Of a DNA stretch of 64,000 nucleotides, positions 2,051 through 33,100 are shown piece by piece. Origin of the DNA: Meloidogyne chitwoodi (Eukaryota > Nematoda > Chromadorea > Rhabditida > Meloidogynidae); contig JACZZP010000002.1 of NCBI GenBank assembly GCA_015183035.1, positions 372,001 through 436,000 of the forward strand. Reading direction: 5' to 3'. Every line of letters begins with the position of its first letter. Positions within the stretch are counted from its first letter, which is position 1. The notes under the pieces are model-generated. The model was not told the DNA's origin. It ran no database searches and saw nothing but the letters and a program-made list of their open reading frames with translations. The position numbers were made by a program, and so were the translations under genes.

Positions 2051-5000
2051 TCAGCAACAAGTTTTAGTAGCAGGACAAGGTTCATATCCACCTAATGCAT
2101 TTGGATCTAATGTAAAATCTGTTTGCACAAGGAGGGCGTGTTCAAGAAATCGTATGCTTGGATGAACGATTGTCTATAAAATTTTTTAAAGAGAAAATAA
2201 TTATAAAATATTTCTAAACACTTACAATAGGCAGTCCTTCAATGTTGCTAGGTATATTTAATTCTGTGCCCTTCTCTAATGCATCATTAGCAGACTTAAT
2301 ATTTAGTACAATGATAAATAGTTTATTTCTTTTTAATTTATTTTTTTAAATGATATTTTTCTTTTATCCTACAATACCTTAAGAAGAATATCTTTCCCCA
2401 ATGTTCCAAGGTTGTCGAGAGCATCTTGAGGTAGTCCTAATTGATTTCCAACATCCTGTAGATTTAATCTGGAAATATTCGCATGTCCAGATATTCTATT
2501 TCCTTGGCCATTAATTGTAATAATTAAAGAAGTATCAATTCGAATTGTTCCAGCCACTACGTTTGTTGATTCTATATGAAACTCTGCGTTGAGTTTAGCA
2601 TTAATTAATGCAGTTCCTATTAAAATTATTTTTGTTATCAAAAATTATTTATTGCTAGGAATTGAAAAAAAATATTGTTGAAGTAAAAATACCTCCATTA
2701 GCACCACTAATTTGTACAGATGGTGCACGTTCTGTGGAAATAATGATATAAACACGTTGATTTGGATACTTCTCACGAACAGACTTAAGTTGTTATTTAT
2801 ATTAAGAAATTCTGATTTTAAATTTATCTTAAAATTCTGATTTTAAATTTATTCTTAAATTCTGATTTTAAATTTATTCTTAAAATTCTGATTTTAAATT
2901 AATTCTTAAAATTCTGATTTTAAATTTATTCTTAAAATTCTGATTTTAAGTTTTCTTAAGTTACCGGCAAAATATCGCCCAAACAAATTCCCAGGCTTGT
3001 CAAATCTCCAGCATCTTGTCTTTTTAAACGCTTCAATATTTTCAATGCTTTAGCTGCAGCCTTTTTCTTCTTCGCTTCAACATTTATTGTAGCGGTCGTA
3101 GTAGATCCATCAGCTTCTTCAGTCTCAACTCCATGATCTTCTAATTCAGTATCACCTCCTTCATCCTCACTATCTCCACAAGTCGTTTTTAGTAAATCAC
3201 CAAATTTTGGAGTTTCTGGTCCTATTCGAATTCGAATGAAACCAGTGCTGTTAAATAGATTGTTTTAAATTAATTTTATAAAATGTCTGATTATGATTTA
3301 ATAAATTTATTAAAAAATATTACTTGTGTAGATGATAAAGTAATGAATTTATTGAATAATCGCTGATTAATACTTCAACCATTTTACAATTAACACAGGA
3401 TGGAAATTGCATTGGAAAAGGGCCGAATGGGGTACACCCTCTTCCACAAACACTAAATCCTCCTAAAATAATTTTAAAAATTAATTTTAAAAATTAATTA
3501 CCGTTGACTTCAATTGTAAAATCTCTAGTTGAAGCATAAGTTTGAAGAAGTTGAATGTTTAAATAAATGTTGTTAAGTTTACGCTTAAAATATTAAATAA
3601 ATTTTTAAATTAAAAAATAAATAGAAAATATTAAAAAATAAACCAACCAAATCCATTGATTGCAATATTGTAGTTAAAAAAGCTAAAGGATTTTCATCTG
3701 TTCCAGTGTTGGTACAATTTTCACACAACTTTTCTCCAGGGTCTACAAATGATACTCTTCCAGAATCTGAAGGAGTAGCACGATCATCACGTGTTTTAGC
3801 TAAATCGGAGTTAACGTTTCGTACAGGACGTTGTGCACGGGGAGGGATAGGTTCAACTGTTGGAGGATTCTGAAAATTCTGATTTAATTATTTCAAGTTT
3901 ATTTTTATTAAAAATTCTGATTTAGTTATTTCAAGTTTATTTTTATTAAAAATTCTGATTTAATTATTTCATTTTTATTAAAAATTCTGATTTAAGTTTA
4001 TTTTATCAGAATTTAATTAAAATTTACAATTTTGGTATTCATTGTATCAGCAACATTAATGGTAACAATTTTAGGCATACTTCCCCTTCCAATAGTTTTT
4101 GGTTTAATAGGTTGTAATAAATGTGGATGAGCATGTTGTTGATTATTATTTGAAAAAGGTCTAGCCAAAATTTGTTTATTTTGAGAATTTAAAGTTGCTC
4201 CACTAATTAATTTTAACGAAGGATCTTCATTATTTTTTATAACACGTCCACCATCTTTTGTTGGAATTAATTTATCATGTGAAAAATGTGGAGGTAATAC
4301 AAGCACTGTTGAATTTTTAGAAGATGTAGCAGCATGGGCAGCTGCTGATTTTCGATTTTTGCAAGAAGCTGGACAACTACGTTTTGTCTTAAAAAAGGAA
4401 AAAATGAATAAGTTTTATTATTAAACATACATTTCCTCCACCTAATATATTTTCTAAACCAAAGGCATTTAAAGCTATTTTCAATAATTGTGAAAGAGGA
4501 ATATTTCGAGGAATTAATGTTGAAATTTTTGAGTTAACTTCAGTATCTAATATTCCTGGCAATCTTTGGCAGAGCTGTCCTGGAATTTGTTGTCTGACTA
4601 ATTCACTAATTTTGCCCTTAAATTGAAAAAATAGAGTTTTAAATAATTATTGTTAAATATGAATTTCAATTTTAAAAATTAAAAAATTAAAACTTACCCT
4701 AAAATGACTGTTTGCAATATCCCCAACTAGACCTCCATTTTGAATGTAAACATCAAGAAACCCGACACTAGCAGCACCTAAAAATAATTTTTAATTAGAA
4801 ATATTTAAATAATTAATAAGTATTTTTCTAAAATAATTTTAAACTTACAGCTAACCATTCGAATTACAGGCCCTCCATCAGCACCTGTGGCTATTGTCAC
4901 ACCGACACGTACACTAACCTAAAAAAATTTTTTTAAAAAAGATTCATTTTTATTTTAAATTACCTGATGGGCATTTACTTGAATAATTCCAAACAAGGCA

Positions 5001-6485
5001 ATTGGTATAAGAATGACTATTTGTCCACCTAAGTTGCCTGTTACCCTAAAGAATTTGTTTATTAATTTTTTAAATAAATAAAAAAAATTACAAAATTACC
5101 CAATATCAAGATTATGCACATCTAGAACAATTTGATTTGGAGGAGCAGGATAAACTAGCACTCCTTAAAAAATAAAATTATTATTAAGGTCTTTAATTCT
5201 ACAACTCACGTTCAGGACATCGAAAACGAGACACATATAAATTGTAAACATTAATACACCCTGAGAACTGTAAAAAAATTTTTTAAGATTATCAAGTTTG
5301 TGAATACTTAAGTTTAATAGTTGCTTAAGTTCTCAATAAACATTTAAAATAATCAGAATATGAAAACAAATAACATCAGAATAATAAAATTCTGATTCTA
5401 TTATTTCAAGTTTATTTATCAACAAAATTCTGATTTCCAAGTTTATTAAAAAAAATAATGCTTCAGAAAGAATTAAAAATTATTGTAACATTTTACCTGT
5501 GGAATGCATTGTTGAATGTTTGGCAGCCTTGCTCTTTTTATATAGTAATCTGTTATAAATATTTTTATAATTAAATTCTTTCCATAATGTAATTATTATG
5601 GTAAAAATCTTACTAAGAATGCCTGAAGCAATAGTAGAAAGATATTGGAATGCCCTTTGGTTCAGTCTTGCTTTAATGCCAGCACCTCCAGTGATTCCAC
5701 CGGCCAATACAGGATCAAAATAAGAACTAAAAAATTTTCTTATAGAAAAAATTATCAACTAACGGTGGAGGACATCTTCCATCCCATGGAGCATTACAGT
5801 TAATTTCACCGGTTTGTGTTTGTCGTAATACCCTCCTATCAGTTGATGGCAAATCATTTCTCTGAAAAATAAATCTAAAATATAATATTTTTTTTCCATC
5901 ATTTTTTAAAGAAAAATTAAAATTAAATACATACCAAATGTGTTTCAAGAAGGACACTTCTCCTTGGATGACTAACAATTAAAGAAGTGCTATCGCCGCT
6001 ACTAAATTCATCGATCCAATGTTGCTGTGGTAGTTGGGGTTGTGCAAGAGGAAAAAGCAAACAGAAAAACCATAAAAATAACTAAAAGTAAAAATTAAAA
6101 AATTAAAATTCTGATTTCAAGTTTATTTTTTTTAGATAAAATTCTGATTTCAAGTTTATTTTTTTTAGATAAAATTCTGATTTCAAGTTTATTTTTTTTT
6201 AGATAAAATTCTGATTTCAAGTTTATTTTTTTTTAATTAAAATTCTGATTTCAAGTTTATTTTTTTAAATAAAATTCTGATTTAAAGTTTATTTTTTTAG
6301 ATAAAATTCTGATTTCAAGTTTATTTTTTTAAATTAAAATTCTGATTTCAAATTTATTTATTAAATTAATTCTTGTCTCAAGTTTATTTTTTAATTAAAA
6401 TTCTGATTTCAAGTTTATTTCCAAAATATTATAGTAAATATATTTAAAAATAATTATAATTTCTGACCTTTCGTCGCCACCACAT
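2051..6485 (-). CDS. BPI/LBP/CETP-family lipid-binding protein
   Basis: Twenty in-frame exons, on the minus strand at 6485-6468, 6081-5935, 5861-5764, 5726-5614, 5549-5497, 5267-5210, 5163-5100, 5045-4964, 4918-4849, 4777-4698, 4616-4431, 4387-4028, 3869-3648, 3583-3502, 3462-3324, 3247-2965, 2783-2693, 2616-2378, 2294-2226 and 2173-2051, encode about 858 residues. The start chosen gives MWWRRK spliced to LFLWFFCLLFPLAQPQ, a textbook signal peptide; an upstream in-frame ATG (6536) would add 17 residues. The family signature GIKARLNQRAFQYLS follows at about residues 108-122. Later parts also fit the BPI fold: LYVSRFRCPE, a Cys-containing helix near residues 263-320, and the C-terminal start ISDYSINSLLYHLH. 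It is much longer than vertebrate BPI (~480), with a ~190-residue low-complexity linker (exons 12-13) and an acidic then Lys-rich insert (exon 16). Expected to be secreted and to bind lipid or LPS-like ligands; the ligand is unknown. Confidence 0.8.
2805..2950. repeat. AATTCTGATTTTAAATTTATT tandem array (intron 16 of BPI-like gene)
   Basis: About six copies of a 22-24 base unit with core AATTCTGATTTTAAAT, inside the intron between 2784 and 2964. The same core recurs in at least six other arrays in the window. Confidence 0.8.
3868..4016. repeat. AATTCTGATTT array (intron 12 of BPI-like gene)
   Basis: Four units with core AAAATTCTGATTTAATTATTTC, some carrying TCAAGTTTATTTTTATT. It fills most of the intron between exons 12 and 13. 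Confidence 0.75.
6108..6425. repeat. AATTCTGATTTCAAGTTTATTTTTT array (intron 1 of BPI-like gene)
   Basis: About ten units of 28-32 bases with core AAAATTCTGATTTCAAGT followed by a T-rich tail of variable length. This makes up nearly all of intron 1, between the two halves of the signal peptide. Confidence 0.85.
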
Positions 6486-9400: not shown

Positions 9401-10953
9401 TTAAACTCTAAAGTTTATTAATTAGGTTTGTATACGTCTATGTTTTTTAAACTTAAGATTGTAATTTAAACTTGAAAAAGGAACAAGTTTGAAGTTTTAT
9501 CTTAAATTCCTAATTGTAACTTAATATATTTATTATTTTTAATTTAAACTTGTTTCAAGTTTAAATTATATTTTAGTTCACACCCTTCATCTTTAATTTT
9601 TTGCTATTTGTTCAAAACTGCGGATGTTGAAGCAATGGACAATAACAAAAATTTTTTTAAAGGGATATGAAAAATGCTTAATAACTTATATTTTGTCCGA
9701 TAATTTTAATAAAGTTTACATACGAGGTTTGATGAAAATAATATTTTGATAATTTCTAGTTCAATTAAATAAACTTTTACAAGCTGCTTCAATAAATTGT
9801 TGAACTAAACGTAAACCAAATAAAAAACCAAAAAATTAGCTGATCAAAATCCAGCTTAAAAATCTAACAATATAAAAACATAAAAAACATAAATCATTAC
9901 AATTCATTTATTTTTAGGCAACAATTTCCTGTGCAATTTTTTGTGATCTGCGCTTTTAAGAAATGATTTGTGTCGTTCATAAGCGTGAAAGCTATGATAT
10001 ATAAAACTGGTATATAATAAACTTTTTTTAAAAGCTATGTGTAATATGTTAAACTTTTATGCTTAAAAAATATTGTTGCGTTTTATAGACAAATTAAAAC
10101 AAAATAAACAAAAAAATAAATATATAAAAAATGAACATATTTCAGTTTGTAAGACAACTTTTAATTCTGAAAATTAATTTGTAAAATGAATACAGAAAAC
10201 ACAATTCAAAAGTTCGGAATAGTACTTGTTTATTTTACAAATTGTAATTATAGTTGTAAATTATTCTGATTTTTCCGGAATACTTGTTTATTTTACAAAT
10301 TGTAATTATAGTTGTAAATTATTCTGATTTTTCCGGAATACTTGTTTATTTTACAAATTGTAATTATAATTGTTAATATAAAATTATTTATTCTAAACTC
10401 AATCTTAATAAATAATTAAATAAAAAAATCTAATTTAATAAAATGTCACAAGCCATAAAGGCTTAATTGACATTTTCTTATAAATACTTCCATATTATAA
10501 ATGAATAATAAATTTGTTTTATTTATATATTTAATTTGTTACACTTTGAAAAATTTTTTATTAATTTTTATTTTATTATTTATTAAGTTTTATTTTATTT
10601 TCTCTTTTTATTGGAATTTTGTCTAAATTTAATTTAATATTTATTTATTTTATTTTATTTAATTTATTTTCTTCTAATAAAATTTTAAATTGGGAACATA
10701 AAATAGAGATAAAAAATTGAAAATTAAATTTAAATTAATTTCTAAATTGTTTCTTAATTTTAAAGTAAAGTACCTTTTTATTTTAAATTAATTAAATAAT
10801 AAAATATTATTTAATAAAATATTTTTTTTATTTTTTCTTAACATTTGCTATATTTTATTAAATATAAAATATTATTTTTAAATTAAATAAATTTTATTTT
10901 GCGTCATTTAAAAATTAAATTATGATAAATTTAAGTAAGTGTTCTCCTTAAAG
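6486..10953. other. long AT-rich intergenic region, presumed upstream region of the BPI-like gene
   Basis: No supportable gene, tRNA or rRNA seen on either strand. It contains small features: three CCGCCTGCTTC-type words (7700-7800), an AATTCTGATTT/AAACTTGAAA repeat patch (8330-8510), AAGTTTAATCTT-type words (9330-9570) and a 58-base tandem repeat (10216-10375). The promoter of the minus-strand BPI-like gene should lie just right of 6485, but no clear core motif stands out. Confidence 0.5.
10216..10375. repeat. 58-bp tandem repeat, about 2.7 copies
   Basis: Unit begins GGAATACTTGTTTATTTTAC and ends TTATTCTGATTTTTCC. Two full copies are near-identical and the third decays after TTGTAATTATAATTGTT. 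It carries the TTCTGATTT word common to the intron arrays. Confidence 0.85.
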
Positions 10954-10974
10954 GTGCCTATCAGGGATCGCGCC

Positions 10975-11190
10975 GACAAAAAATCAATTCCCGATTTTCG
11001 GGAATCGGGAATTCCCGAAATTTTTTAATTACCGATTTTCGTGAATCGGGAATTCCCGAAATTTTTTAATTACCGATTTTCGTGAATCGGGAATTCCCGA
11101 AAATTTTCAATTACCGATTTTCGTGAATCGGGAATTCACGACCCAAAAATCGTCGGGAATTCCCGATTTTCGGGAATCGGGAACGTTAAT
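10975..11190. repeat. subterminal repeats, 3' end of outer hAT
   Basis: About four units of roughly 46 bases, each with ACCGATTTTCGTGAATCGG followed by GAATTCCCGAAATTTT. The same block, inverted, is at 14056-14271 in the inner copy. Subterminal repeats of this kind bind transposase in known hAT elements; that role is inferred here. Confidence 0.8.
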
Positions 11191-11371
11191 ATACTTTAAT
11201 AAAAATAGGCTACAAAATAAATTATTTTTAAAAAAGAGTTAAAATAAGTGAGATATAATTAATATTCAAAATCAATTATTGGTAAATTAGATGAAATAAA
11301 CAATAATTTTCTGATATTTTCTTCACTTAACCTGTTTCTAAGATCAGTACAAATCAGGGATCGCGCCGACC

Positions 11372-11565
11372 CGATTCCCGATTCCCGAAAATCGGGAATT
11401 CCCGACGATTTTTGGGTCGTGAATTCCCGATTCCCGAAAATCGGGAATAGAAAAATTTCGGGAATTCCCGATTCACGAAAATCGGGAATGCAAAATTTTC
11501 GGGATTCCCGTTCCCGATTCCCGATTTTTTTTTTGAAAAATCGGGAAAAAATCGGGAATTTGATG
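11372..11565. repeat. subterminal repeats, 5' end of inner hAT
   Basis: Palindromic TTCCCGATTCCCGAAAATC words repeated about five times between the terminal repeat and the transposase. The mirrored block in the outer copy is at 16619-16812. The two ends of the element have different repeat spacing. Confidence 0.75.
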
Positions 11566-11711
11566 TCTATTTGCATTATGTTTATTTGTTTCTCTATTCA
11601 TAATACTATTTTTTATTTTGTGCGTTTTATTTTTTTGTTTGTTTCTTTATTAATATTATGATATATTTCTTTATTTTAGAGCTTGTTTATATTTTATTTG
11701 ATTTCAACAAA

Positions 11712-13987
11712 ATGAATAAAAATGAAAAGAGTACCTGGTGGTATTACTTCACAAAAAATGGAGATTTAGTAAAATGTAACAATTGTATTTGGGAGGGAAA
11801 ATATAGTTCAAAACAGGGAACAAATGGATTAAAATCTCATTTGGAAAAAAACCACAAAGAATTGTATATACAAAAAGTACAGGCAGCTCAACAACACGAA
11901 AAACTCCAGATTCAGCAACAAAGCAAAATTCACTTAAAAAATACTTTTCCTCATCTTTCCCCCTGGATTCGACTGAACCACAGAGTAAGTGGTCAAAAAT
12001 TGAGTCAACATCAAGGATATATTCAATGTTTGGTAAGCTAAATATTCATAATAACCTTTTTACTATTGTTCAGGAAAATGGGAAGAAGGATCTGATAGTG
12101 CTGTACTTTTAGAAACACGTATTGGAGAGATGATTGCACTTGATTTCCAACCTTTTATAGTGACTGAAGATATAGGTTTTCGACGTGTTTTACAATTACT
12201 TGCGCCAACATATAAGCCAAGGTTTTTCTTTAATTCTTTACCTACCTTTTTAATAAATATCATCTAAGGAGCGCTAAATATTACAGTGAAACAGTGGTGC
12301 CTAAAATATATTGTTCAATCCTAAAAAAAGTTAAAAAATCATTATCATCCGAATATTTTTCTTTCACTATTGATGCTTGGACTTCAAAAAATCAATTACA
12401 TTCGCTTTTAGCATTAACTATTCATTACCTGGACGACAAATTTTTACCAAAATATTTCGTTTTGGATGTTCAACCAATCGTAGGACCACACAAAGCAGAA
12501 AATTATGTGGAATTATTACAAGTATAATTAAATTATAACACATATAAAATTTATATTAAGGAATCACTTAGACTTTTTGAAATACCGTTGGAAAAAATTC
12601 ACTTGTGCTTGAGGGATGCCGCTAGTGCTATGCGTAAAACTACTAAACTTATGAATATTCAAAGTTTTGATTGTCTGGCACATAAAATTCAACTAGTATT
12701 GATTTAATTTATTATCTGTTAAAATTTTTTAAAATAGTCTATTCGAGATGGATTTAATAGCATTGATAGTTTTGAAACGATGCAAGAAAAAGCTAAAAAA
12801 ATCATTCGTAAGATTAGGAAGAGTCAACTTGCAAGAGAAAAGCTGAAAGAAATCCAAAAAATTATGGATTTACCACAAAGAGAATTAATCAAAGATTGTG
12901 ATGTTCGTTGGAACTCCACATTCTTAATGTTTAAATCAATCTTGAACAATCGTCGTGCATTAGCTTATATTAGTCAAACTGAAAGTTCGTTTCCTAAATT
13001 TGAGGAGAGTGAATGGGATTTAATGAATGAATTGGTTAAGATTTTAGAACCGGTTAAAACAACCATTCTAATATTTTTAATTTATAATTTAGATGTATCT
13101 TGCAACAAAAGAAATAGAAAACAGAAATTGCTCAATTTCTTCATATATTCCAATTGTTAAAACACTTATAAATTGTTTAACAGAACCTAATTTACGTTTG
13201 AATAATTTTTGTAAATCTATCATCCTAGGGTTAAAAAAAAGAATGGCTGATGCTGAATGGGAAGAGTGGTGGACTGCAAAATCGTCGGAGTGTATTCCTG
13301 GATTTAAAAGAAACAAGTTAAATTAATAATTATTTTAAATTTTATTTTTTACAGGAACCTTTCCTTGGCTACAATTCTCGACCCTAGATATAAATGTTAT
13401 TTTTTTGAAGAAGATTTTATTACATGTTGCAAAGATCAGTTGAAAGAAGAAGCAATTAATTCACGTATTAAATATAAAATTATTAAGTTAGCTTATATTT
13501 TAGTGTCAGATGATCAAATTGATAATCTGTCTGATACATGTTTTCCAGACGATTCGCCTGAATTATTAAGTGGATTTTATGCAATTATGACACAACAAAG
13601 AGGTTTAATCAATTTTTTAAAATTTAGTAATTATTTTTAGTAGGAAATGAAATAGAGGATGTGCCTAGGCCAAATTCTGCCGGATTGCCAGATATACAGT
13701 TACAAACGACAGTTCAAATTGCTGAATACCTTGCAGAACCAGTAAAGTCATTCAAAATCTGTCCCTATGAGTATTGGTCAAACATTCAATCGTTAGGAAA
13801 GTGGCCTTTACTTGTTAAACTCGCTCGAAAGTTTCTATCAGCTCCTTGTGGATCTGTCGAAAGTGAAAGAGTTTTTTCTAAAGCTGGCCTCATTTGTACT
13901 GATCTTAGAAACAGGTTAAGTGAAGAAAATATCAGAAAATTATTGTTTATTTCATCTAATTTACCAATAATTGATTTTGAATATTAA
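11712..13987 (+). CDS. hAT transposase (BED zinc finger plus hAT dimerisation domain), inner copy
   Basis: Starts at the ATG of MNKNEKSTWW. Approximate exons are 11712-12032, 12074-12221, 12269-12521, 12561-12695, 12738-13049, 13092-13313, 13356-13604 and 13649-13987. A BED finger uses Cys22, Cys25, His43 and His48. The RNase-H-like core shows FTIDAWTS (first catalytic Asp), a LRDAAS motif (probable second Asp) and DVRWNSTFLM. The C-terminus has the dimerisation signature CGSVESERVFSKAG, then LRNRLSEENIRKLLF. A one-base change of frame is needed between about 11870 and 11905 (A-runs) to join the BED segment to the downstream TKQNSLKKYFSSSF-type reading; a 23-base GT-AG gap would also do it but is very short for an intron. 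The same lesion is in both copies. Product would cut and paste the 2930-bp element; current activity is uncertain. Confidence 0.85.
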
Positions 13988-16837
13988 TTATATCTCACTT
14001 ATTTTAACTCTTTTTTAAAAATAATTTATTTTGTAGCCTATTTTTATTAAAGTATATTAACGTTCCCGATTCCCGAAAATCGGGAATTCCCGACGATTTT
14101 TGGGTCGTGAATTCCCGATTCACGAAAATCGGTAATTGAAAATTTTCGGGAATTCCCGATTCACGAAAATCGGTAATTAAAAAATTTCGGGAATTCCCGA
14201 TTCACGAAAATCGGTAATTAAAAAATTTCGGGAATTCCCGATTCCCGAAAATCGGGAATTGATTTTTTGTCGGCGCGATCCCTGGTACAAATGAGGCCAG
14301 CTTTAGAAAAAACTCTTTCACTTTCGACAGATCCACAAGGAGCTGATAGAAACTTTCGAGCGAGTTTAACAAGTAAAGGCCACTTTCCTAACGATTGAAT
14401 GTTTGACCAATACTCATAGGGACAGATTTTGAATGACTTTACTGGTTCTGCAAGGTATTCAGCAATTTGAACTGTCGTTTGTAACTGTATATCTGGCAAT
14501 CCGGCAGAATTTGGCCTAGGCACATCCTCTATTTCATTTCCTACTAAAAATAATTACTAAATTTTAAAAAATTGATTAAACCTCTTTGTTGTGTCATAAT
14601 TGCATAAAATCCACTTAATAATTCAGGCGAATCGTCTGGAAAACATGTATCAGACAGATTATCAATTTGATCATCTGACACTAAAATATAAGCTAACTTA
14701 ATAATTTTATATTTAATACGTGAATTAATTGCTTCTTCTTTCAACTGATCTTTGCAACATGTAATAAAATCTTCTTCAAAAAAATAACATTTATATCTAG
14801 GGTCGAGAATTGTAGCCAAGGAAAGGTTCCTGTAAAAAATAAAATTTAAAATAATTATTAATTTAACTTGTTTCTTTTAAATCCAGGAATACACTCCGAC
14901 GATTTTGCAGTCCACCACTCTTCCCATTCAGCATCAGCCATTCTTTTTTTTAACCCTAGGATGATAGATTTACAAAAATTATTCAAACGTAAATTAGGTT
15001 CTGTTAAACAATTTATAAGTGTTTTAACAATTGGAATATATGAAGAAATTGAGCAATTTCTGTTTTCTATTTCTTTTGTTGCAAGATACATCTAAATTAT
15101 AAATTAAAAATATTAGAATGGTTGTTTTAACCGGTTCTAAAATCTTAACCAATTCATTCATTAAATCCCATTCACTCTCCTCAAATTTAGGAAATGAACT
15201 TTCAGTTTGACTAATATAAGCTAATGCACGACGATTGTTCAAGATTGATTTAAACATTAAGAATGTGGAGTTCCAACGAACATCACAATCTTTGATTAAT
15301 TCTCTTTGTGGTAAATCCATAATTTTTTGGATTTCTTTCAGCTTTTCTCTTGCAAGTTGACTCTTCCTAATCTTACGAATGATTTTTTTAGCTTTTTCTT
15401 GCATCGTTTCAAAACTATCAATGCTATTAAATCCATCTCGAATAGACTATTTTAAAAAATTTTAACAGATAATAAATTAAATCAATACTAGTTGAATTTT
15501 ATGTGCCAGACAATCAAAACTTTGAATATTCATAAGTTTAGTAGTTTTACGCATAGCACTAGCGGCATCCCTCAAGCACAAGTGAATTTTTTCCAACGGT
15601 ATTTCAAAAAGTCTAAGTGATTCCTTAATATAAATTTTATATGTGTTATAATTTAATTATACTTGTAATAATTCCACATAATTTTCTGCTTTGTGTGGTC
15701 CTACGATTGGTTGAACATCCAAAACGAAATATTTTGGTAAAAATTTGTCGTCCAGGTAATGAATAGTTAATGCTAAAAGCGAATGTAATTGATTTTTTGA
15801 AGTCCAAGCATCAATAGTGAAAGAAAAATATTCGGATGATAATGATTTTTTAACTTTTTTTAGGATTGAACAATATATTTTAGGCACCACTGTTTCACTG
15901 TAATATTTAGCGCTCCTTAGATGATATTTATTAAAAAGGTAGGTAAAGAATTAAAGAAAAACCTTGGCTTATATGTTGGCGCAAGTAATTGTAAAACACG
16001 TCGAAAACCTATATCTTCAGTCACTATAAAAGGTTGGAAATCAAGTGCAATCATCTCTCCAATACGTGTTTCTAAAAGTACAGCACTATCAGATCCTTCT
16101 TCCCATTTTCCTGAACAATAGTAAAAAGGTTATTATGAATATTTAGCTTACCAAACATTGAATATATCCTTGATGTTGACTCAATTTTTGACCACTTACT
16201 CTGTGGTTCAGTCGAATCCAGGGGGAAAGATGAGGAAAAGTATTTTTTAAGTGAATTTTGCTTTGTTGCTGAATCTGGAGTTTTTCGTGTTGTTGAGCTG
16301 CCTGTACTTTTTGTATATACAATTCTTTGTGGTTTTTTTCCAAATGAGATTTTAATCCATTTGTTCCCTGTTTTGAACTATATTTTCCCTCCCAAATACA
16401 ATTGTTACATTTTACTAAATCTCCATTTTTTGTGAAGTAATACCACCAGGTACTCTTTTCATTTTTATTCATTTTGTTGAAATCAAATAAAATATAAACA
16501 AGCTCTAAAATAAAGAAATATATCATAATATTAATAAAGAAACAAACAAAAAAATAAAACGCACAAAATAAAAAATAGTATTATGAATAGAGAAACAAAT
16601 AAACATAATGCAAATAGACATCAAATTCCCGATTTTTTCCCGATTTTTCAAAAAAAAAATCGGGAATCGGGAACGGGAATCCCGAAAATTTTGCATTCCC
16701 GATTTTCGTGAATCGGGAATTCCCGAAATTTTTCTATTCCCGATTTTCGGGAATCGGGAATTCACGACCCAAAAATCGTCGGGAATTCCCGATTTTCGGG
16801 AATCGGGAATCGGGTCGGCGCGATCCCTGGTGCCTAT

Positions 16838-18688: not shown

Positions 18689-20770
18689 ATGACTGTCACA
18701 GGAGAGAATGCAAAAGAGTGGACAAGGGATGATGCTCCTCTTGAAGAACGCTTAATTATTGGTTTATTATATTTATGTTCTGCTATAGTTTTTATTATTC
18801 TTCAATTTTCTGTTATTTTTGTAAGTTTTTTTGAAATTTTAAGATAAATAAAATATTAATTAATTTAATGATTTGAAGCAAGTTTTTTTTATAATAAACT
18901 AAAACTTGATTTTTGTAATAAACTTAAAACTTGATTTTTGCAATAAACTTAAAACATGATTTTTATAATAAACTTAAAACTTGATTTTTATAATAAACTT
19001 AAAACTTGATTTTTATAATAAACTTAAAACTTGATTTTTATAATAAACTTAAAACATGATTTTTATAATAAATTTAAAACTTGATTTTTATAATAAACTT
19101 AAAACTTGATTTTTGTATTATTACAAAAGCAGGTTTAATTTTATAAAATATGAAGCATGTTATATTTTTAAAAAATTTCAGAAAATTAATAACAAATATT
19201 TTCAAAGCACTAAATTTATAAATTTAACATATTAAAAAATTTACTTTTTATTTAGATATTTTACACTTATAAAGATTTTTATGGACATCTGTGTTATAGA
19301 ATAATGTTATTTATTTCAATTGCTGATTTAATTCAGCTTATTGTTCATCTTTATGGTTCATTTTTTGAAAAATAAATTCTAAAAATAAAAATAAAATTTT
19401 AAAAATAAAAAAATGTTTGGACAAATTAAAAATAAATTTTTTTTAGGCGGGATCATTTGTCTGCTGGACAATTCATTAAATATATATTTTGAGAAGGTAT
19501 AATATTTTTTAATTTTTTTAAAATTTGTTTTATTATTATTTCTCAGGCAGCTGGGGGTCTAGCAAATGCAATTTCAATGGCTTCCTGGCCCATTTGTTTT
19601 GTTCTGGGATTAAATCGACTTTTAGTCTTTATTCCCTCAAAATTAGATGAAAGAAAAGAAAAACTCCTATTTAATTGGTTAATTGGCCTTTCTCTTCTAC
19701 ATGGCCTACCTTTTTTTATTATTTATTTGACTCCACATTCGACAATAGCTTTTCGTTATTATAATTGGGATTATGTTAGAATGGATTATAATTCTTCAAT
19801 AACTTGGAAGTGGGTCGAAACTGCTACTGGAATTTTACCCTTACCTTATATTATACTAACACTTGCTGTATATTTAGCAATCTTTGTTGTTCTGATTTTA
19901 CAGGTAAAGTTTTTACACTTGAGTTTTTAAACTTGATATTTGTAATAAACTTTAAGTTTGTAATAAACTTGAAATTTTGTAATAAACTTCAAATTTTGTA
20001 ATAAACTTCAGTTTTTAATAAACTTGAATTTTGCAATAATCTTTAAGTTTGTAATTTTTGTAGATGTGAAAAGTTTAATCCTTAATAAATTAGTTTAATT
20101 TTTTAGCGTCGAAAATTGACAATTACAAAACCTAAAAAAATTGTAGCTCCAACACCAACTGTATCAATGCATGTAAATAATCCACATCTTCCTTTTAATA
20201 AAAATAAGATTAATCAAACTAATGTGATTCCAGTTGAATGGAGTAAACCTACTTCAACTTATGTTTCACCAAATCCTATACAACATTTAATTCAACATGA
20301 AAGACGTCTCCTTCTTCAAGCTATTGTTCAATTTTTTGTTGAATTCTCTCTTTGTTCTATTTGGTTTTTTCAAATGATTGGTGGTTCGTATGTTCCAGAT
20401 GGAGTTGTGTTCAATGCTTTTATTAATTGGTATTGGATATTTTACAATGGTTTTAGACCACTAGTCTATTTGGCAATGAACAAGTAATTTTTAATTTTAA
20501 TTAGTTCTGTCTTTTGTATTTTTTAAACTTGATGCAAGTTTATTTTTAACATGATTTTTGTAAAAACTTAGGAAAAATTATAGGTATTTAATTTTTAAAT
20601 TTTTCAGAACAGTTCGTAAGCGTCTTTTGGCACTTTGGCTAAACCGACCTCCTGTTACTCTTATGGATTTTGGACAACTCCAAAGAGTGGGTGCACAACA
20701 AGGGATTCGTGCTTCACCTCGACTTATCTCATTAAATAAACCTCAACAGAACAGTGGGCGAATGAGTTGA
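18689..20770 (+). CDS. Srt-class 7TM chemoreceptor, copy 1
   Basis: Six in-frame exons (18689-18820, 19256-19355, 19447-19496, 19547-19903, 20107-20483, 20608-20770) encode about 392 residues. Hydrophobic segments are spread over the length as expected for seven helices, starting with IIGLLYLCSAIVFIILQFSVI. Features that match the nematode Srt family: CYRIMLFISIADLIQL near helix 2, LGLNRLLVFIPSKLDERKEKL after helix 3, FNWLIGLSLLHGLPFFIIY, and near the end FYNGFRPLVYLAMNK-TVRKRLLALWL, the usual IYL-LN-TIR-type motif. The third intracellular loop is long and polar. Known relatives are nematode-specific G-protein-coupled receptors expressed mainly in sensory neurons; the ligand is unknown. Tail to tail with its paralogue, 146 bases apart. 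Confidence 0.78.
18885..19125. repeat. AATAAACTTAAAACTTGATTTTT tandem array (intron 1, Srt copy 1)
   Basis: About eight units of 28-29 bases with core TAATAAACTTAAAACTTGAT. Related AAACTT-bearing patches lie in intron 4 (19920-20065) and in introns of the paralogue (21060-21235, 21700-21890). Confidence 0.85.
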
Positions 20771-20916: not shown

Positions 20917-22782
20917 TCATATTGGTTGATTTACCAGAGGCATTGGGCGAGCTAATTGTTGTATATTTGAAACACGTCGAGGTATTTTTGCAGATTCAGC
21001 AGTGCTCTCTAATTGTTTGTTAAGCCAGAGGGATAGAAGACGTTGTCGGATAGTTCTGAAAATATTAATATAAACAATATACAGTAAACTTAAGTTTTGT
21101 TGCATTAAACTTAAGATTCCTATTATTATGTTTTACAAAAGTTAATTTTTTCAAACTTAAGAAAATCATTTAAATTACAAACTTAAGTTCTTATATAAAT
21201 TAAATATGCTTCAAGTTTGCAAAATGTTAATATTTACTTGTTCATTGCCAGATAGACAAGAGGTCTGAAACCATTGTAAAATATCCAATACAAATTTGCT
21301 AAAACATTAGTCAATAATCCATCTGGAAGGCAGTCAATCATTTGTAAAAACCAAATTGAAGAAAGAGAGAATTCAATAAAAAATTGAACAACAGCTTGAA
21401 GTAGGAGACGTCTTTCATGTTGAATTAAAGACTGTTTTGGTGTTATTCCATCATTTTGGATTGAAATTCTTGACTGAATTGATAAACGTTGTTGTTGAAT
21501 CTTTTCGCTGAGCATTATTTGTTGCTGTATTTGTTGTTGATTATATAGTTGAAGGTTATTACATTGAGGAGAATAAACATGAACTACAGAAGATATTCGT
21601 CTAATTACTTGTTCTGGTTTTTGCATTGTATAATTAAAAGACATTTTTCGACGCTAAAATATATTAAATTTTGTATTATTTTTTATATAATGTTTTAGTT
21701 ATAATAATTAAACTTGCTTCAAGTTTAATATACAAATTATAATTCAAGTAAAAAAAATTAAACTTGAGTACTTAATTCGTTTTCATCTCTAAACATTATT
21801 AAACTTGTTTTAAGTTTATCAGAACTAATAAATAATTTAACTTTCTCAAGTTTGTAAACTTAAGTTTTTATTAAGTTTATATTTTATATAACTCACTTGA
21901 TACATTAATATTGAGAATATACACAAATAAACAATAAACGTGAGAACGACATAAGGTAATGGTAATGTTTCTGTCGTATATTCAATAAATACTAAATTGT
22001 ATGATTCATAAACATCCAATCTAACATAATCCCAATTATAGTCTCGAAATGCGAGTGTAGAATAAGGAGTTAAGTATAAAATAAAAAATGGAATGCCTTG
22101 AATAATAGAAAGGGCAATTAACCAATTAAAGAGACGTTCAATTTTCCAATCTTCTAGTTTAGTGGGAATAAAGACTAAAAGTCGATTTAATGCCAAAACA
22201 AAGCAAATAGGCCAAGTAATTAAGGAAAAGGAATTTGCTATGCCTCCAGCTATCTGAGAAAAATTTAAAATTTAATTTAATTTAAATTTTATTATTTTCT
22301 ACCTTTTCTAAATAAAAATTGAGTGAGTTGTCAAGCAAACATATTATTCCGCCTGTAAAAAATTAAATTATAATTCAAGTTTGTTTCAAGTTTAATTTTA
22401 AGTTTGCACTAATAATATAACTTGTATTTCAAGCGTGCAAAAAATAACTTGTTTCAAGTTTATTATAAAAATAAACTTGAATCACTTTAAACAATTAAAA
22501 ATATACCATATGCGTGAACTAAAAGTTGTAAGCAGTCAGCTATTGAAATAAAAAGCATAATTCGATAGCATTGATGATTACGCAAGTCTTTGTAATTACA
22601 GAAAACCTTAAATTATTAAATAAATTTTTAAATAAAAAATTAATTTTTACATAAATAACGGAGATCTGAAGAATTAAAAAAATAACGGAAGAACACAAAT
22701 ATAATAAACCAATACTGAGACGTTCTTGGAAAGTTGCCCCTTCTCTAGTCCAATAAAGGGCATTATTTCCTTCTACTGTCAT
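20917..22782 (-). CDS. Srt-class 7TM chemoreceptor, copy 2
   Basis: Six exons on the minus strand (22782-22651, 22606-22507, 22352-22303, 22253-21897, 21653-21238, 21055-20917) give about 397 residues. The first four exons have exactly the same lengths as in copy 1 (132, 100, 50 and 357 bases). Protein landmarks are conserved: CYRIMLFISIADCLQLL, LALNRLLVFIPTKLEDWKIE, HERRLLLQAVVQFFIEFSLSS and FYNGFRPLVYLAMNK-TIRQRLLSLWL. The loop before helix 6 is longer and Gln-rich here. The two genes are an inverted, convergent duplicate that has diverged clearly in the loops and tail but kept the intron plan. Putative chemosensory receptor; ligand unknown. Confidence 0.78.
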
Positions 22783-22857
22783 TTCTAAAATCTAAAATTA
22801 TTTAATAATTAAAAATTTATATTTTAAAAATTTTTTGTTTGGAAATAACAAGAAAAA

Positions 22858-23065
22858 ATAAATTCTGATTTTTAAAACATAAATTCTGATTTTTAAAACA
22901 TAAATTCTGATTTTTAAAAATAAATTCTGATTTTTAAAACTTAAATTCTGATTTTAAAAAATAAATTCTGATTTTCAAAACATAAATTCTGATTTTAAAA
23001 AATAAATTCTGATTTTTAAAACATAAATTCTGATTCATATATTTATATAATAGAAATTCTGATTT
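22858..23065. repeat. AAATTCTGATTTTTAAAACAT array upstream of Srt copy 2
   Basis: About nine units of 20-22 bases with core ATAAATTCTGATTTTTAAAA, starting roughly 75 bases upstream of the start codon of the minus-strand receptor, so within its likely promoter or 5' leader. Confidence 0.85.
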
Positions 23066-23938
23066 TATCTTAAATAACAATAGGATACTTAACAATAAAT
23101 ATAAAGTTAAAAATCAGAATTTCTTTAAGAATAATTAAAATACAAAATACGAAAGAATAAAAATGTGTTAAATAAAATTAATATTTATTAGTTAAATATT
23201 ATTTAATAAGTTTTTTATATTTTCTTTGAAAAGTTTTTTATAATAAATTTTATTAGAATTTTTATTGAAAATTCTATTTATTTGTTACTATTTTTAATTT
23301 TATAAATTAAATTTAAATTAAGTTTAAAATAAAAAAAATAATCTAAAATATTTAAATATATCTGGTTAAAAAATGGAATTAATTTATTTAAAAAAATTAT
23401 TAATATTTATTTAGGTAATTTATTTTTTTACACGAGGGAGTGTTTAAAAAACATTTTTAATTATTTATTTACTAAAAACTAAATTTAGAATATATAATTA
23501 AATTATATTTATTAATTTTTGTTTTTATAAGATTAAAACTATCCCTTATAATTATTTTATTGTAAATTATTAGTTTAGTAATTAATTAATTAATTTTTTA
23601 TTTCTTTTTAAAGTAAATTAGAAGAAAAATCAAAAAAATAATTATTTATTTTTTTAATAATTTTATTTAAACAATTTTAAATACAAAATAATATTTAAAA
23701 ATATTATTTCCAAATTTATTAAATTAATATTGATTTTATAAATATGCATGCAACAACATGCGTTAAACTGCACCTTCCTTGACCCAATTAAAATAAAATA
23801 AAAATTAATTAATTATATCGCAGAGAAAATTTAAATATTATTTTATTTTTAAATGTTTTAGATTAAATTAAAAGATTAAATATTTATTTATTTGAATATC
23901 TTTATTTTTTTATTTAATTTAAATAATTTAAAATTAAT
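23066..23938. other. intergenic region between divergent receptor and dehydratase genes
   Basis: Simple AT-rich sequence between two divergent genes. It must contain the promoter of the plus-strand gene at 23939. A small island at 23741-23790 (ATGCATGCAACAACATGCG) stands out by composition, but no function can be assigned. Confidence 0.45.
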
Positions 23939-28111
<4,173 letters not shown>

Positions 28112-30140
28112 TAAAAAAAATAAAATTAATTTATTTATTTATTTCTACTAAAATCTAAAATACATTTTTTAATATATTATAAGTATATTTGAATTTTTTT
28201 AAAATATTTGTGGTGAGAAAAATTAAATTTTGGAAAAATAAAGGCAGATAGAAAGAGTTAAAGGAAAGATAAGAATAAAAATAATTAATTAATTTTAATT
28301 GCAAAAATTAATTAAATAAGTCAACTCTCTAATATTAGTGAATATCTATTAAAAATACTGTATAACAACAATCTCTTTATATAATAAACATTTATTTAAA
28401 ATCAGTTTCCGGAAGTGAAATATTTCCAGAAGTGACTATTTATCGTTTTCTAATTGTTTCCTATATTTCCGGAAATTAAAATGTTTAAGAAATTTTTCCG
28501 TTTTTTGTTTTTACAAAACAACCGGATATCAATTTTAAGCCCGAACATTGCTAAAAACATTTGTTTTAAGTATGTTTCTTAGAGTTCATTTAACTGTAGA
28601 AAACAAGCGCACCCTTTCCTATAGTCCCTTAGTTTTATTAGAAAGTTGACTAAATAAAATAATTAATTAAAATTAGGGATTCTAACATTGTAAACTAAGA
28701 GTAATAACAAAAATTTAAAGAAAAAAAATAAAAAAATATATTTGTAAAATTTAATAATACATATTTAATACCTTTAATGGATTCTCTAAAATTTGGGAAA
28801 AGAAGAAAGTTTTCATTTAAAAAATTAATTTTTGATTAATTGTTTTAATAAAATAAAATATTTAAAAATTATGTACAAATAAAGGAATCGAAATTCATCA
28901 GTAAAATTTAAAAAAATAGATTTTTAATCAAAGTAATTACCGTATTATTTTAAATAAAGCCTCACTAAATTAGAACATTACAAAAATAAGGTCATTTGTT
29001 GAAAAAAATTCTTAAGCTCTATTTTAGCTAATACGGCATTTAAATAATTATATTTAAATTAAATTTGGGTAATAAAATGAATATATATTTTAAATCAAAC
29101 GAATCGAAAGAACGGAGTATTGAATGAATATAAGGGCGAGGTAAAAATTTACATAGGCAGTGTAATTTAAATTTTGTGTAAAAAACACAAAATAGTCAAT
29201 TAAAAATTAAAAAAAAATCACAAATTGGCGAAAATTATAAAATATTAATGTAAGCTAAAGGATTGGGATTAAATAATATTTTTAATTAATTAAAATTATT
29301 TTGCTAACAAAATTTATAAAGAGAGAGTCTCAACTGCAATTTTCAACCTTTATTAAATCCCAATCCTAAAAAAATTTTTTTTTAATAAAATATAAAAATG
29401 TAAGGAATGGGAAACCCAAATAGTTTATTCTGAGACAAATCCATTATTTTCTAACCAAAATATTTTGGTGCAAAGCCCAAAAAGGCTAAGAGCACAATAT
29501 TTTGGGGATATTTCTCACTGAAACTAAGTGATCTTTAAAAATTAAAAAAAAATTAAAAGATAGATAAAGGCTTTAAAAAATAAATTTTTTGAAAGAATCA
29601 GAGGTAAGAGGGGAACAAGTAAAAAATTTTAATTTAGTGAAAGACATTAAAAAAATTTTTCAATTGAATTTATAATTATAAATAATATGAAGTTTGTGTA
29701 GTAGATTTTGCGTTGTTTTTGTTGTAAGAAAATAAATTCTGAAAATTCTTAATATGTACATAAAATAGTTTAATTTCCGGAAACAATTAAAATTAATAAG
29801 TTATTTCCAAAAAAACATAAACAATTCTGTTTCCTGAAAAACAAAACATATAAATGTTTCCGTAAAAAACATTAATAAATGTTTCCGGAAAAAACATTAA
29901 TAAATGTTTCCGGAAAAAACATTTATAAATGATTCCGGAAAAAACATTTATAAATGATTCCGGAAAACAAACAATTATTTTTTCTGAAAAACAAAACATT
30001 TATATTTTCCGGAAACAATTCAAATTAATAAATTATTTCCCGAAAAAAACAAACATTTATAAGTTTTTCTGGAAATAATTAAAGTAAACAAACAAACCTT
30101 AATAAAATACTAATAAAAAATATTACATTTCCCTCATATT
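28112..30140. other. intergenic region between convergent genes
   Basis: Separates the 3' ends of the RmlB/RmlD-like gene (+) and the zinc-finger gene (-). No gene recognised. It holds TTTCCGGAAA words near 28405-28500 and an array at 29770-30065. Short conserved-looking stretches such as 29430-29520 have no reading frame or RNA fold that can be assigned by eye. Confidence 0.5.
29770..30065. repeat. TTTCCGGAAAAAACATTTATAAATG array
   Basis: About ten units of 24-26 bases, each with the palindrome TTCCGGAA or a close variant followed by AAACATTTATAAAT. It lies just downstream of the zinc-finger gene's stop codon. Confidence 0.85.
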
Positions 30141-33100
30141 TTATTTTCTGCAATTTTCCATTTTGTCTATATTATTATAATCCTCAGAATAAACATTTTT
30201 AATTTCAAAATTACTCAAATCATTTTTAACTGATGATTTTTGATTTTGTTCAAAAGAAAAACCAGAGGAGTAATCATCTATTGGGGAATGACTTCTAAAA
30301 AATATAAATAATAAATTTTTGAAAAAAAAATTAAATTTCCCTCACCCAGCAGGACTCTGTGTGTCCGATCCGTGATAACCAGAATCTTGGGTAGTTTTTC
30401 TTGACAAAAGTTCAGAAGGTATAATTGTTTGTGAAGATTGTGATGACTTAAAATGTGAAGATTCCTCATTTTGATAATTTTCAACAATTTCTTCTTCTTC
30501 TTCTTTATCACTATTTCCGTTCAAATCACTCCCCACAAAAGAAAATTGATCTATTGGATTGACAAAAAAAGGAAGATGCTAAATAATTATTTTTTTAATA
30601 ATTTTAAATATTTTCTAATAATTTAAAAAAAATAAAAAACCATTCCAACAGGAGGAGAATGGCATTGTGGCCAATTGTCTTTGTGTCGTCTCAAGGCTAA
30701 TGCAGACCTAATTTTTATTTAAATATTTTAAAAAATTAATTTTAATAAAATTAATTTAAAATTTTAATTATTTTAAAACATATTACCTAAATATTCCATT
30801 ACAATTTTTACAATTATGAGGGGAGTAATCCGCATGTTGTAGGTGATGTGTCTGAAGGTTCTGCTCAGTTAAAAAACGTTCAGGACAACTAAATAAATAA
30901 AAATAAATTTTAAAAAAGGTAGAAAAAAGAAGCAATCACCTTTCACAATGAAATTTAAAAGTATCCAATTCATTGTGATAAGCCATATGACGGCCAAAAT
31001 ATTCACGGCTAGGGAAGTATAGCTTGCACTTACGACAATTAAACACCTAAATAAATAAATAAATAATTTTAAAAATAAATAAGAGATAATTAAGAGAATT
31101 ATGAGGAAAATAAAATTGTTTTTCAAAATAAAATTTGACAAAAATAAAAAAAATAAAATAATAAAATTGGAAATAAAAACGACACTGTAGAGCTAATGTG
31201 TCTCCTTATATAAAGGTAGTGGCGATTTTATTTTTAAAAAAATTTTAAAAAATTAAAGGAAAAAAAACAAAAGAAATAAAAACTGTCTCTCCCACCAGCC
31301 CAAACATTTTAAAAATTTTTTTAAAAATTTTTAAATAATAAACTTTACCCTATGTCTATTTTTATGTAAATACTCTTCCAAAACTTGTGATGATAAAGGT
31401 TGTTGATTCTCCCTTATATTTTCTTCATTTTTATTTAAAAAATTACTTTCTTCCCCCTTATTTTCAATATGATAATAACCATTAAATTCTCCAGTTATTG
31501 TAGTTAATTTATTTGAAAATAAAGTGTTAGTAGTAGAGGGAGAGGAACATTGATTTTTAAATATTTCATTTTGATTTGCTCCTTTTTCATTTTTTAAATG
31601 ATTATCCATTATTAAAAGACCTCCTCTTTGTGTTGTTGAATATATTTGTTGATGATCAAAATTAGAATATTGGGGAGAATTATTAAATTCTTGTTGAGTG
31701 CCATAAATTGGTGTTGTTGTATTTATGGAAATTGAACAAGGAGATTGATGATTAACTTTTATTTTTTTAATTAATTAAATTAAAAATATTGAGATGAAAT
31801 AAGTAAAATTAATAAATAAAGAAAAAATTGAATAAGTTCACAAATAAATAAAAATTATTCAATTACGACTATATTTCCAAAAGTGATCAAAATAAATAAA
31901 ATTTGATTCGCCTCGTCGAGATTAATTGAATGGTACCACTTTTAATACGATAAAATGCATAAGAACAAAGAAATAATCTTTTTAAAATCATAAAGCCACA
32001 GGGGGGACCAAGCTCATTTAAGTGATTACCGAGGCTGCTCTTTATTTTTTAAATTTACCTCCATTAGAAGATTTTTGATCATCACTTGCTTTTTGATTTT
32101 CCAAAATTTTTTGTTGTTCTTTCATTTTTTTCTTGTCTGCCGATCTGGTATATGCACGACGACGATATCTAAATATTTTTTACTTTTTATTTGAAAATTA
32201 TTAATTTATTTAAATTACGGATGCCCAATCAAATTAAACTCTCCAGCAACCAAAAGGCGATTACGTTCAGGACATTTATGTTGATAAAGGTTAGAGCGAA
32301 ATTTATATGTCTAAAAATAAATGGATTAAAATATAATTGACTCTCTTTATAAATACACTAAACGTTAATATAAGGCCTAAAAGTAGCCACTATATCCATT
32401 ATAAATGGGAGTCTACGGAAAATATTTATTAAATTAAATACCTTCATACAAAAACGACATTTAAAAGGTCTATCATTGCTATGTTTAACTGCATGCTTAA
32501 AAAATAAAATTAATGTTTTTTCCGGAAAAAATAAGTTTTTCCGGAATAAATGTTCAGTTAAAAATTAATATTTGACGGAAGACATGTTTTCCGGAAGAAA
32601 TTTTCAGTTAAAATTAATATTTTCCGGAAGAAATGTTTTTCCGGAAGAAATGTTCAGTTAAAAATTAATATTTTCCGGAAGACATGTTTTTCTGGAAGAA
32701 ATGTTCAGTTAAAAATAAGTTTTTCAGGAAAGAATATTTATTTAAATAATTTTTCATAAACAACTTTCAATGTTTTCTAATATTTAACTTTCCGTAAATA
32801 ATGTTTAATGAAACAATTAAATTTAATTATTTATTTGGTATATTTAGGTTTTCCGGAAAATAAAAAAATTTACTATAATATTTATTTATTTATTTACCTG
32901 TTTTAAATACCAAACAGAATTAAAAAGTTTTCCACAATCAGCACACGCGCATTGTTGATTTTTTTCTAAGGTAATAGTTATGTGGTCAACCTTTGAAGGT
33001 GAAATAATTATTGGGGGTGGTGGTGGAGCTAAAGGAGATTTGTCAGGAATATTTAAAAATGATGGAGATGATGTTGTTGATTTAATATTAGAGTTATTAA

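What the first reader, a model, noticed from the sequence alone, without database searches (positions are those of the whole stretch)
10962..16829. A hAT transposon inserted into a full-length copy of itself, in opposite orientation
Seen directly: two pairs of CAGGGATCGCGCCGAC ends, each pair with its own perfect 8-bp duplication (GTGCCTAT outside, GTACAAAT inside). The inner element is 2930 bases; the outer reassembles to exactly 2930. Inner target lies in the outer transposase's last coding block. Equal length with no indels implies both copies moved very recently, so the family is, or was until lately, mobile in this genome. I know of no description of this element, though I cannot search.
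Basis: partly seen in the sequence, partly recalled or inferred. Interest (0 to 1): 0.85.

Follow-up and report, generated by a model that had tools for sequence, protein, structure and literature searches.

The report
Jumping gene inserted into itself, backwards
In the genome of a root-knot nematode, a hAT-type jumping gene has landed, in reverse orientation, inside a virtually identical copy of itself, which resembles a rare arrangement known from maize to break chromosomes and suggests the family moved recently.

Summary
Window 10962-16829 (5868 bp = 2 x 2930 + 8) is one 2930-bp hAT element (11355-14284, + strand, TSD GTACAAAT) inside a second 2930-bp copy (- strand, TSD GTGCCTAT). They differ at 1 of 2930 bases, no indel. 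The host is a Meloidogyne (species inferred, probably M. chitwoodi). The element has 16-bp TIRs, 41-bp subterminal repeats and a 9-exon transposase with BED finger and hAT dimerisation region, related to Hermes: an Ac/Hermes-like hAT. I found two other full-length copies (95% identical, 37.7 kb apart, no substitution between them) and many short derivatives, three nearly identical: recent mobility is supported. Two corrections: near-identity dates the split of the two copies, not the outer insertion; and all four full-length copies found break frame in A-runs of exon 1 as assembled, so autonomy is unproven. No third full-length copy with these ends was found, so the simplest origin is transposition from one chromatid into the same element on its sister. 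The arrangement is that of maize double Ds, a chromosome breaker; here both halves are full-length, in a probably holocentric animal. New member of a known kind.

The parts
10954..10961 (.). outer target-site duplication, left copy (GTGCCTAT)
10962..11346 (-). outer element, R-end arm (385 bp), begins with TIR 10962-10977
10986..11141 (-). 41-bp subterminal repeat array of the outer R end (3.8 copies)
11259..11346 (-). severed 3' end of the outer transposase's last exon (88 nt)
   Evidence: coordinates mirrored by arithmetic from the inner gene model
11347..11354 (.). inner target-site duplication, left copy (GTACAAAT)
11355..14284 (+). inner full-length hAT element, 2930 bp; L TIR 11355-11370, R TIR 14269-14284
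11417..11517 (+). subterminal repeats of the inner L end (2.5 copies)
11712..12032 (+). inner transposase exon 1 (zf-BED; frame changes in an A-run near 11900)
12074..12221 (+). exon 2
12269..12521 (+). exon 3 (presumed first catalytic Asp, FTIDAWT)
12561..12695 (+). exon 4 (presumed second catalytic Asp; CxxH)
12738..13052 (+). exon 5 (RWNST motif)
13093..13316 (+). exon 6
13355..13464 (+). exon 7 (LDPRYK)
13504..13602 (+). exon 8
13641..13987 (+). exon 9: presumed catalytic Glu and hAT dimerisation region; holds the 8-mer (13892-13899) that is the target in the outer copy
14105..14260 (+). 41-bp subterminal repeat array of the inner R end (3.8 copies)
14285..14292 (.). inner target-site duplication, right copy (GTACAAAT)
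14293..16829 (-). outer element, L-end arm with exons 1-8 and most of exon 9 of its transposase; ends with TIR 16814-16829
16667..16767 (-). subterminal repeats of the outer L end (2.5 copies)
16830..16837 (.). outer target-site duplication, right copy (GTGCCTAT)

Best explanation
An Ac/Hermes-like hAT cut-and-paste transposon of a root-knot nematode inserted, in opposite orientation, into the last transposase exon of a virtually identical copy. Shown: ends, TSDs, target 8-mer, orientation, near-identity. Inferred (about 0.6): the donor was the same locus on the sister or homologous chromatid, so one local transposition after replication made the pair. Also inferred: while transposase was available the result would behave as a compound locus. 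The inner element could leave alone, the whole 5868 bp could move by its outer ends, and unlike ends in direct orientation (R 10962 with L 11355; R 14284 with L 16829) could react as in maize double Ds and break the chromosome.
For: Two perfect TSD pairs and 1/2930 mismatch. No other full-length copy with this end-type found: exact ends pair at full length only here; DNA search (40 of 52 candidates scored) and exon-9 protein search (66 of 66 scored) show only these two and the C28 pair. The C28 pair lies 37.7 kb apart; by arithmetic about 0.16% for random placement. TSDs fit nTnnnnAn in 13 of 16 complete elements against 14% of window positions, the Hermes pattern (passages of PMC10368747, and PMC2803484). 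zf-BED E 1.4e-5 and Dimer_Tnp_hAT E 1.2e-15 (1.2e-4 and 1.5e-14 on the read-through). Hermes E 3.4e-18 in PDB. D, D, E, CxxH and RW columns invariant or nearly so among 10 aligned sequences. dN/dS 0.18 between the two subfamilies over exons 2-9.
Against: No raw reads seen. 4 of 4 full-length copies break frame in exon 1 as assembled. Of 8 separate reading-frame pieces only 2 reached a Pfam cut-off for hAT-type domains; hAT-like_RNase-H stayed below its cut-off (17.6 of 27 bits). Same-locus origin rests on not finding a third copy, which a lost or unassembled donor would also give. Chromosome breakage is by analogy only.
Confidence: 0.9

Rival explanations
1. Same nested insertion, but the inner copy came from another full-length copy elsewhere that has since been lost or is not assembled. 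(A rival only to the same-locus origin, inside the 0.9.)
For: Cut-and-paste can empty its donor site (general knowledge); the assembly of 30 contigs may lack copies.
Against: No other full-length copy with this end-type found; a random hit into one given 2930-bp stretch is about 6e-5 per insertion (arithmetic, 2930 of 47,477,280).
Confidence: 0.3
2. The nest is older and its arms were made alike afterwards by gene conversion or repair between inverted copies.
For: Close inverted repeats can convert one another (general knowledge).
Against: Other pairs of the family, at different sites, are just as alike, so recent copying suffices; TSDs perfect.
Confidence: 0.06
3. Assembly artefact: two haplotypes or a fold-back read joined head to head.
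For: Perfect inverted repeats are a classic artefact; no reads were available; flanks share weak AT-rich similarity.
Against: The inverted repeat ends at the outer TSDs, adjacent flanks 46/100 identical, arms are asymmetric (385 and 2545), a second perfect TSD lies inside, one base differs between copies.
Confidence: 0.03
4. The family can no longer move itself: the exon-1 frame breaks are real and no copy makes a full transposase. (Compatible with the best explanation of the structure.)
For: 4 of 4 full-length copies break frame in exon 1.
Against: Exons 2-9 carry one in-frame 3-nt indel and no out-of-frame one between the window copy and C28a, with dN/dS 0.18; the breaks lie in A-runs, and copies of the 1-kb derivatives also differ in run lengths, as sequencing error could give.
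Confidence: 0.4

Closest known systems
Maize double Ds (sh-m5933 type), Ac/Ds family
   Same: hAT element with 8-bp TSDs inserted into a copy of itself in opposite orientation (details of double Ds recalled; passages of PMC3260210 say that all chromosome breakers have multiple ends, that nested Ds are rare, and that no chromosome-breaking double Ds was detected in B73).
   Different: Double Ds halves are deletion derivatives (recalled); here both are full-length with transposase genes. Animal host, probably holocentric. Breakage not shown here.
Hermes / Ac group of hAT transposons
   Same: 8-bp nTnnnnAn TSDs, short TIRs, subterminal repeats, BED finger, D-D-E core, C-terminal dimerisation region.
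   Different: Distant in sequence from Hermes; nine exons; 41-bp palindrome-rich subterminal repeats. No tree was built.
hAT transposase-like proteins P0001/P0002 of Heterodera trifolii
   Same: Closest proteins found, 46-50% identical.
   Different: Only protein records seen; no ends or TSDs examined.

Membership tests
hAT superfamily | 8-bp target-site duplication | tested here: met
   16 complete elements with perfect 8-bp TSD (outer, inner, two on C28, 12 shorter); 3 shorter ones have imperfect TSDs, 6-7 of 8
hAT superfamily | short TIRs (10-25 bp), 2.5-5 kb length (passage of PMC3942097) | tested here: met
   16-bp perfect TIR, 2930 bp
hAT superfamily | transposase with BED finger and hAT C-terminal dimerisation region | tested here: met
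   zf-BED 1.4e-5 and Dimer_Tnp_hAT 1.2e-15, both above curated cut-off, on separate reading-frame pieces
hAT superfamily | D-D-E catalytic core related to Hermes | tested here: met
   Hermes E 3.4e-18; D192, D260, E611 nearly invariant in A2; which residues are catalytic is recalled
Ac group of hAT | nTnnnnAn targets rather than nnnTAnnn | tested here: met
   13 of 16 have T2 and A7; TA at 4-5 in 6 of 16; no tree was built; the Buster pattern is recalled
autonomous hAT element | unbroken transposase gene | tested here: not met
   4 of 4 full-length copies break frame in exon 1 as assembled; sequencing error not excluded
double Ds-like compound element | two near-identical copies, one inside the other, opposite orientation, each with its TSD | tested here: met
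double Ds-like compound element | breaks chromosomes when transposase is present | not testable with these tools
   needs reads or cytology

The most novel reading that the evidence does not exclude
A natural animal counterpart of double Ds built from two full-length elements: a chromosome-breaking locus that persists because root-knot nematode chromosomes are holocentric, so that broken pieces are not lost as they would be in maize.
Probability: 0.1. Interest if true: 0.7.

Novelty: new member of a known kind. Interest (0 to 1): 0.36.

Why it matters
Nested Ds elements are rare in maize, and it has been argued that this is because they break chromosomes and are selected against (PMC3260210, passage). 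A nearly fresh self-nested hAT in a probably holocentric animal allows a test of that idea: does the nest rearrange its surroundings, and is it tolerated? It also marks a recently moving DNA transposon family in a root-knot nematode, with transposase-bearing copies, short derivatives and a clear target preference.

Tried and rejected
Assembly artefact: weighed and largely rejected. Captured tRNA gene in the 1-kb derivatives: ARAGORN found none in 11 loci, so only a tRNA-like stretch is claimed, by eye. Rfam on three derivative loci gave 9 matches up to E 0.1, all below gathering score (7 miRNA families' matches, one antisense RNA, one sRNA), most over the palindromic ends; taken as chance. Rfam on the window: none. 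An alternative splice donor in exon 1 was looked at by eye only and did not reconcile the frames. The outer R arm folds more strongly as single-stranded DNA than 100 shuffles (z -6.6), as its palindromic repeats would make it; no function is claimed. Like ends in direct orientation 100-130 bp apart elsewhere: none; this pattern cannot find the 393-bp spacing of the nest itself, so it is a weak test. Empty outer site elsewhere in the assembly: none at full length. Literature: searches found no paper; some searches gave listings. No paper describing this family was seen in the listings (4 of 4 papers; 12 of 178), of which I saw titles and starts of abstracts; that does not prove there is none. 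No structure prediction was run.
Full report
What is there. The window lies at C12:372001-436000 of a 47.48-Mb, 30-contig assembly, 23% GC in the window. The host is a root-knot nematode: a chemoreceptor read from two frames within 19493-20484 has 9 hits, all named Meloidogyne, best 81% to M. graminicola. Genome size, GC and contig number suggest M. chitwoodi; that species name is recalled and inferred, not shown. The passages of PMC12614787 that I saw gave no assembly figures.

Check of the observation. The outer arms sum to 385 + 2545 = 2930 bases, the inner element is 2930, and they differ at one base, element position 1635. The two other full-length copies in the genome carry the outer copy's base there, so the change probably happened in the inner copy or its immediate source. 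The inner copy holds the target 8-mer once, at element 2538-2545. The inverted repeat ends at the outer TSDs; the flanks share only weak AT-rich similarity. With the asymmetric arms and the inner TSD this makes a fold-back artefact very unlikely.

What it is. The transposase gene model has nine exons and eight introns of 38-47 nt that begin with GT and end with AG, from 11712 to 13987 in the inner copy; it was made by eye from reading frames and homology, without transcripts. Exon 1 carries a BED finger, exon 9 the hAT dimerisation region. Search of solved structures finds four distinct sequences, two named Hermes transposase and two named only 'transposase' (2bw3 and 4d1q, recalled as Hermes), best E 3.4e-18. 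In an alignment of the query with 9 of its 19 hits, the positions expected for D, D and E and the CxxH and RW motifs are invariant or nearly so (which residues are catalytic is recalled from Hermes). The closest proteins are two from Heterodera trifolii. Of the 19 hits 8 bear a name, none of them Meloidogyne, although Meloidogyne proteins are in that database; repeat masking before annotation could explain this. The TSDs fit nTnnnnAn in 13 of 16 complete elements (14% of window positions do). The 16 are the 4 full-length copies plus 12 shorter ones with perfect TSDs; 3 shorter ones with imperfect TSDs (C4, C12, C4) and one end without a partner (C4:1645031) were left out. Both ends carry 41-bp repeats. 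GGGAATTCCC occurs six times in the inner element, all within about 205 bp of an end, and nowhere in the window outside 10962-16829. The repeats are likely binding sites for the BED fingers, by analogy with Hermes (PMC10368747, passages).

The family in the genome. A DNA search with the inner element gave 79 matching pieces, a lower bound (40 of 52 candidates scored). Full-length copies found: the two here, and two at C28:728828-731770 and 766528-769471 with a variant end (CAGGGATCCTGCCGAC), 95% identical to the window copies and differing from each other by one A of a run. A search with the exon-9 protein (66 of 66 candidates scored) finds no further copy above 54% identity apart from the severed end of the outer gene. 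The C28 copies have different TSDs (ATATATAC, GTGCACAC), so they are separate insertions. Exact ends of the first type occur at 17 places, of the second at 21. Six derivatives of about 1 kb keep roughly the outer 200 bp at each side (one lacks about 90 bp of one side) around some 600 bp of foreign filler; three of them, on C8, C23 and C27, differ pairwise by 0-1 substitution in about 1050, while the other pairs differ by 3 to 41. Short forms of 141-243 bp also occur. Thus both subfamilies and some derivatives moved recently. Between subfamilies dS is 0.083 and dN/dS 0.18 over exons 2-9; the nest's 1/2930 (95% interval 9e-6 to 1.9e-3 per site) is a small fraction of that.

A result against easy autonomy. 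All four full-length copies as assembled lose the reading frame within A-runs of exon 1: from ATG to the same donor the exon is 321, 321, 323 and 324 nt long. In the window copies exon 1 stays open, but the BED finger and the rest of the protein lie in different frames. Exons 2-9 show one in-frame 3-nt indel and no out-of-frame one between the window copy and C28a. I cannot tell sequencing error in homopolymers from real damage. If real, the nest was made before or in spite of the break, with transposase from a copy now gone.

How the nest arose. Only two full-length copies with this end-type were found, and both are here. Cut-and-paste after replication, from one chromatid into the copy on its sister or homologue, makes such a pair in one step. 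The C28 pair, 37.7 kb apart, also speaks for local movement; two pairs are few. I give the same-locus origin about 0.6 and a lost distant donor about 0.3; both sit inside the 0.9 for the nested insertion itself.

What it would do. Read along the + strand the ends are R(outer) 10962, L(inner) 11355, R(inner) 14284, L(outer) 16829. The first two are unlike ends in direct orientation, 393 bp apart; so are the last two, 2545 bp apart. [quoted passage not shown] Chromosome-breaking Ds elements all have multiple ends; nested Ds are rare, and no chromosome-breaking double Ds was detected in B73 (PMC3260210, passages). PMC10844300 speaks of the holocentric nature of the polyploid root-knot nematodes (passage); that the present host shares it is inferred. 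On such chromosomes breakage might cost less. None of this is shown for the present locus. The outer copy's gene is cut 259 nt into its 347-nt last exon and would lack the end of the dimerisation region.

Novelty. The arrangement is known from maize (details recalled); the element family was not seen described in my searches (listings only). It is a new member of a known kind, of moderate interest because it is so fresh, because both halves are full-length, and because of its probably holocentric host.

Noticed in passing
C8:657504-658554, C23:1175126-1176176, C27:524327-525377, C28:1883113-1884165, C2:863250-864210, C2:1198293-1199348 (L004, L016, L015, L014, L001, L020): 1-kb derivatives of the element in which the transposase is replaced by about 600 bp of filler with a tRNA-like stretch (A-box- and B-box-like, read by eye) and pieces about 70% similar to many other places in the genome.
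   Followed up: partly
19493-20484 (+) and 21237-22271 (-): Two 7TM chemoreceptor-like genes on opposite strands, alike by eye. The first matches Meloidogyne proteins, most bearing PF10321; Pfam found no domain in the single pieces tested.
   Followed up: partly
23927-26633 (+): Pieces of a sugar-nucleotide epimerase/dehydratase-like gene (GDP_Man_Dehyd, Epimerase), with an AAAATGTC-type tandem repeat at 26495-26584.
   Followed up: no
2807-2953, 3873-4043, 6104-6420, 22853-23035, 24218-24445, 43601-43784: Minisatellite arrays of different period share the core ATTCTGATTT or its complement; others (10223-10377, 29843-29967, 32505-32736, 54399-54541) share TTTCCGGAA. A dispersed motif of unknown nature.
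   Followed up: no
59357-59704 (+): UNC-79 cation-channel complex subunit (Pfam E 9.5e-21).
   Followed up: no
C28:620631-769471: Five matches to the hAT C-terminal region within 150 kb, including the two full-length copies of the second subfamily; possible hAT-rich stretch.
   Followed up: no
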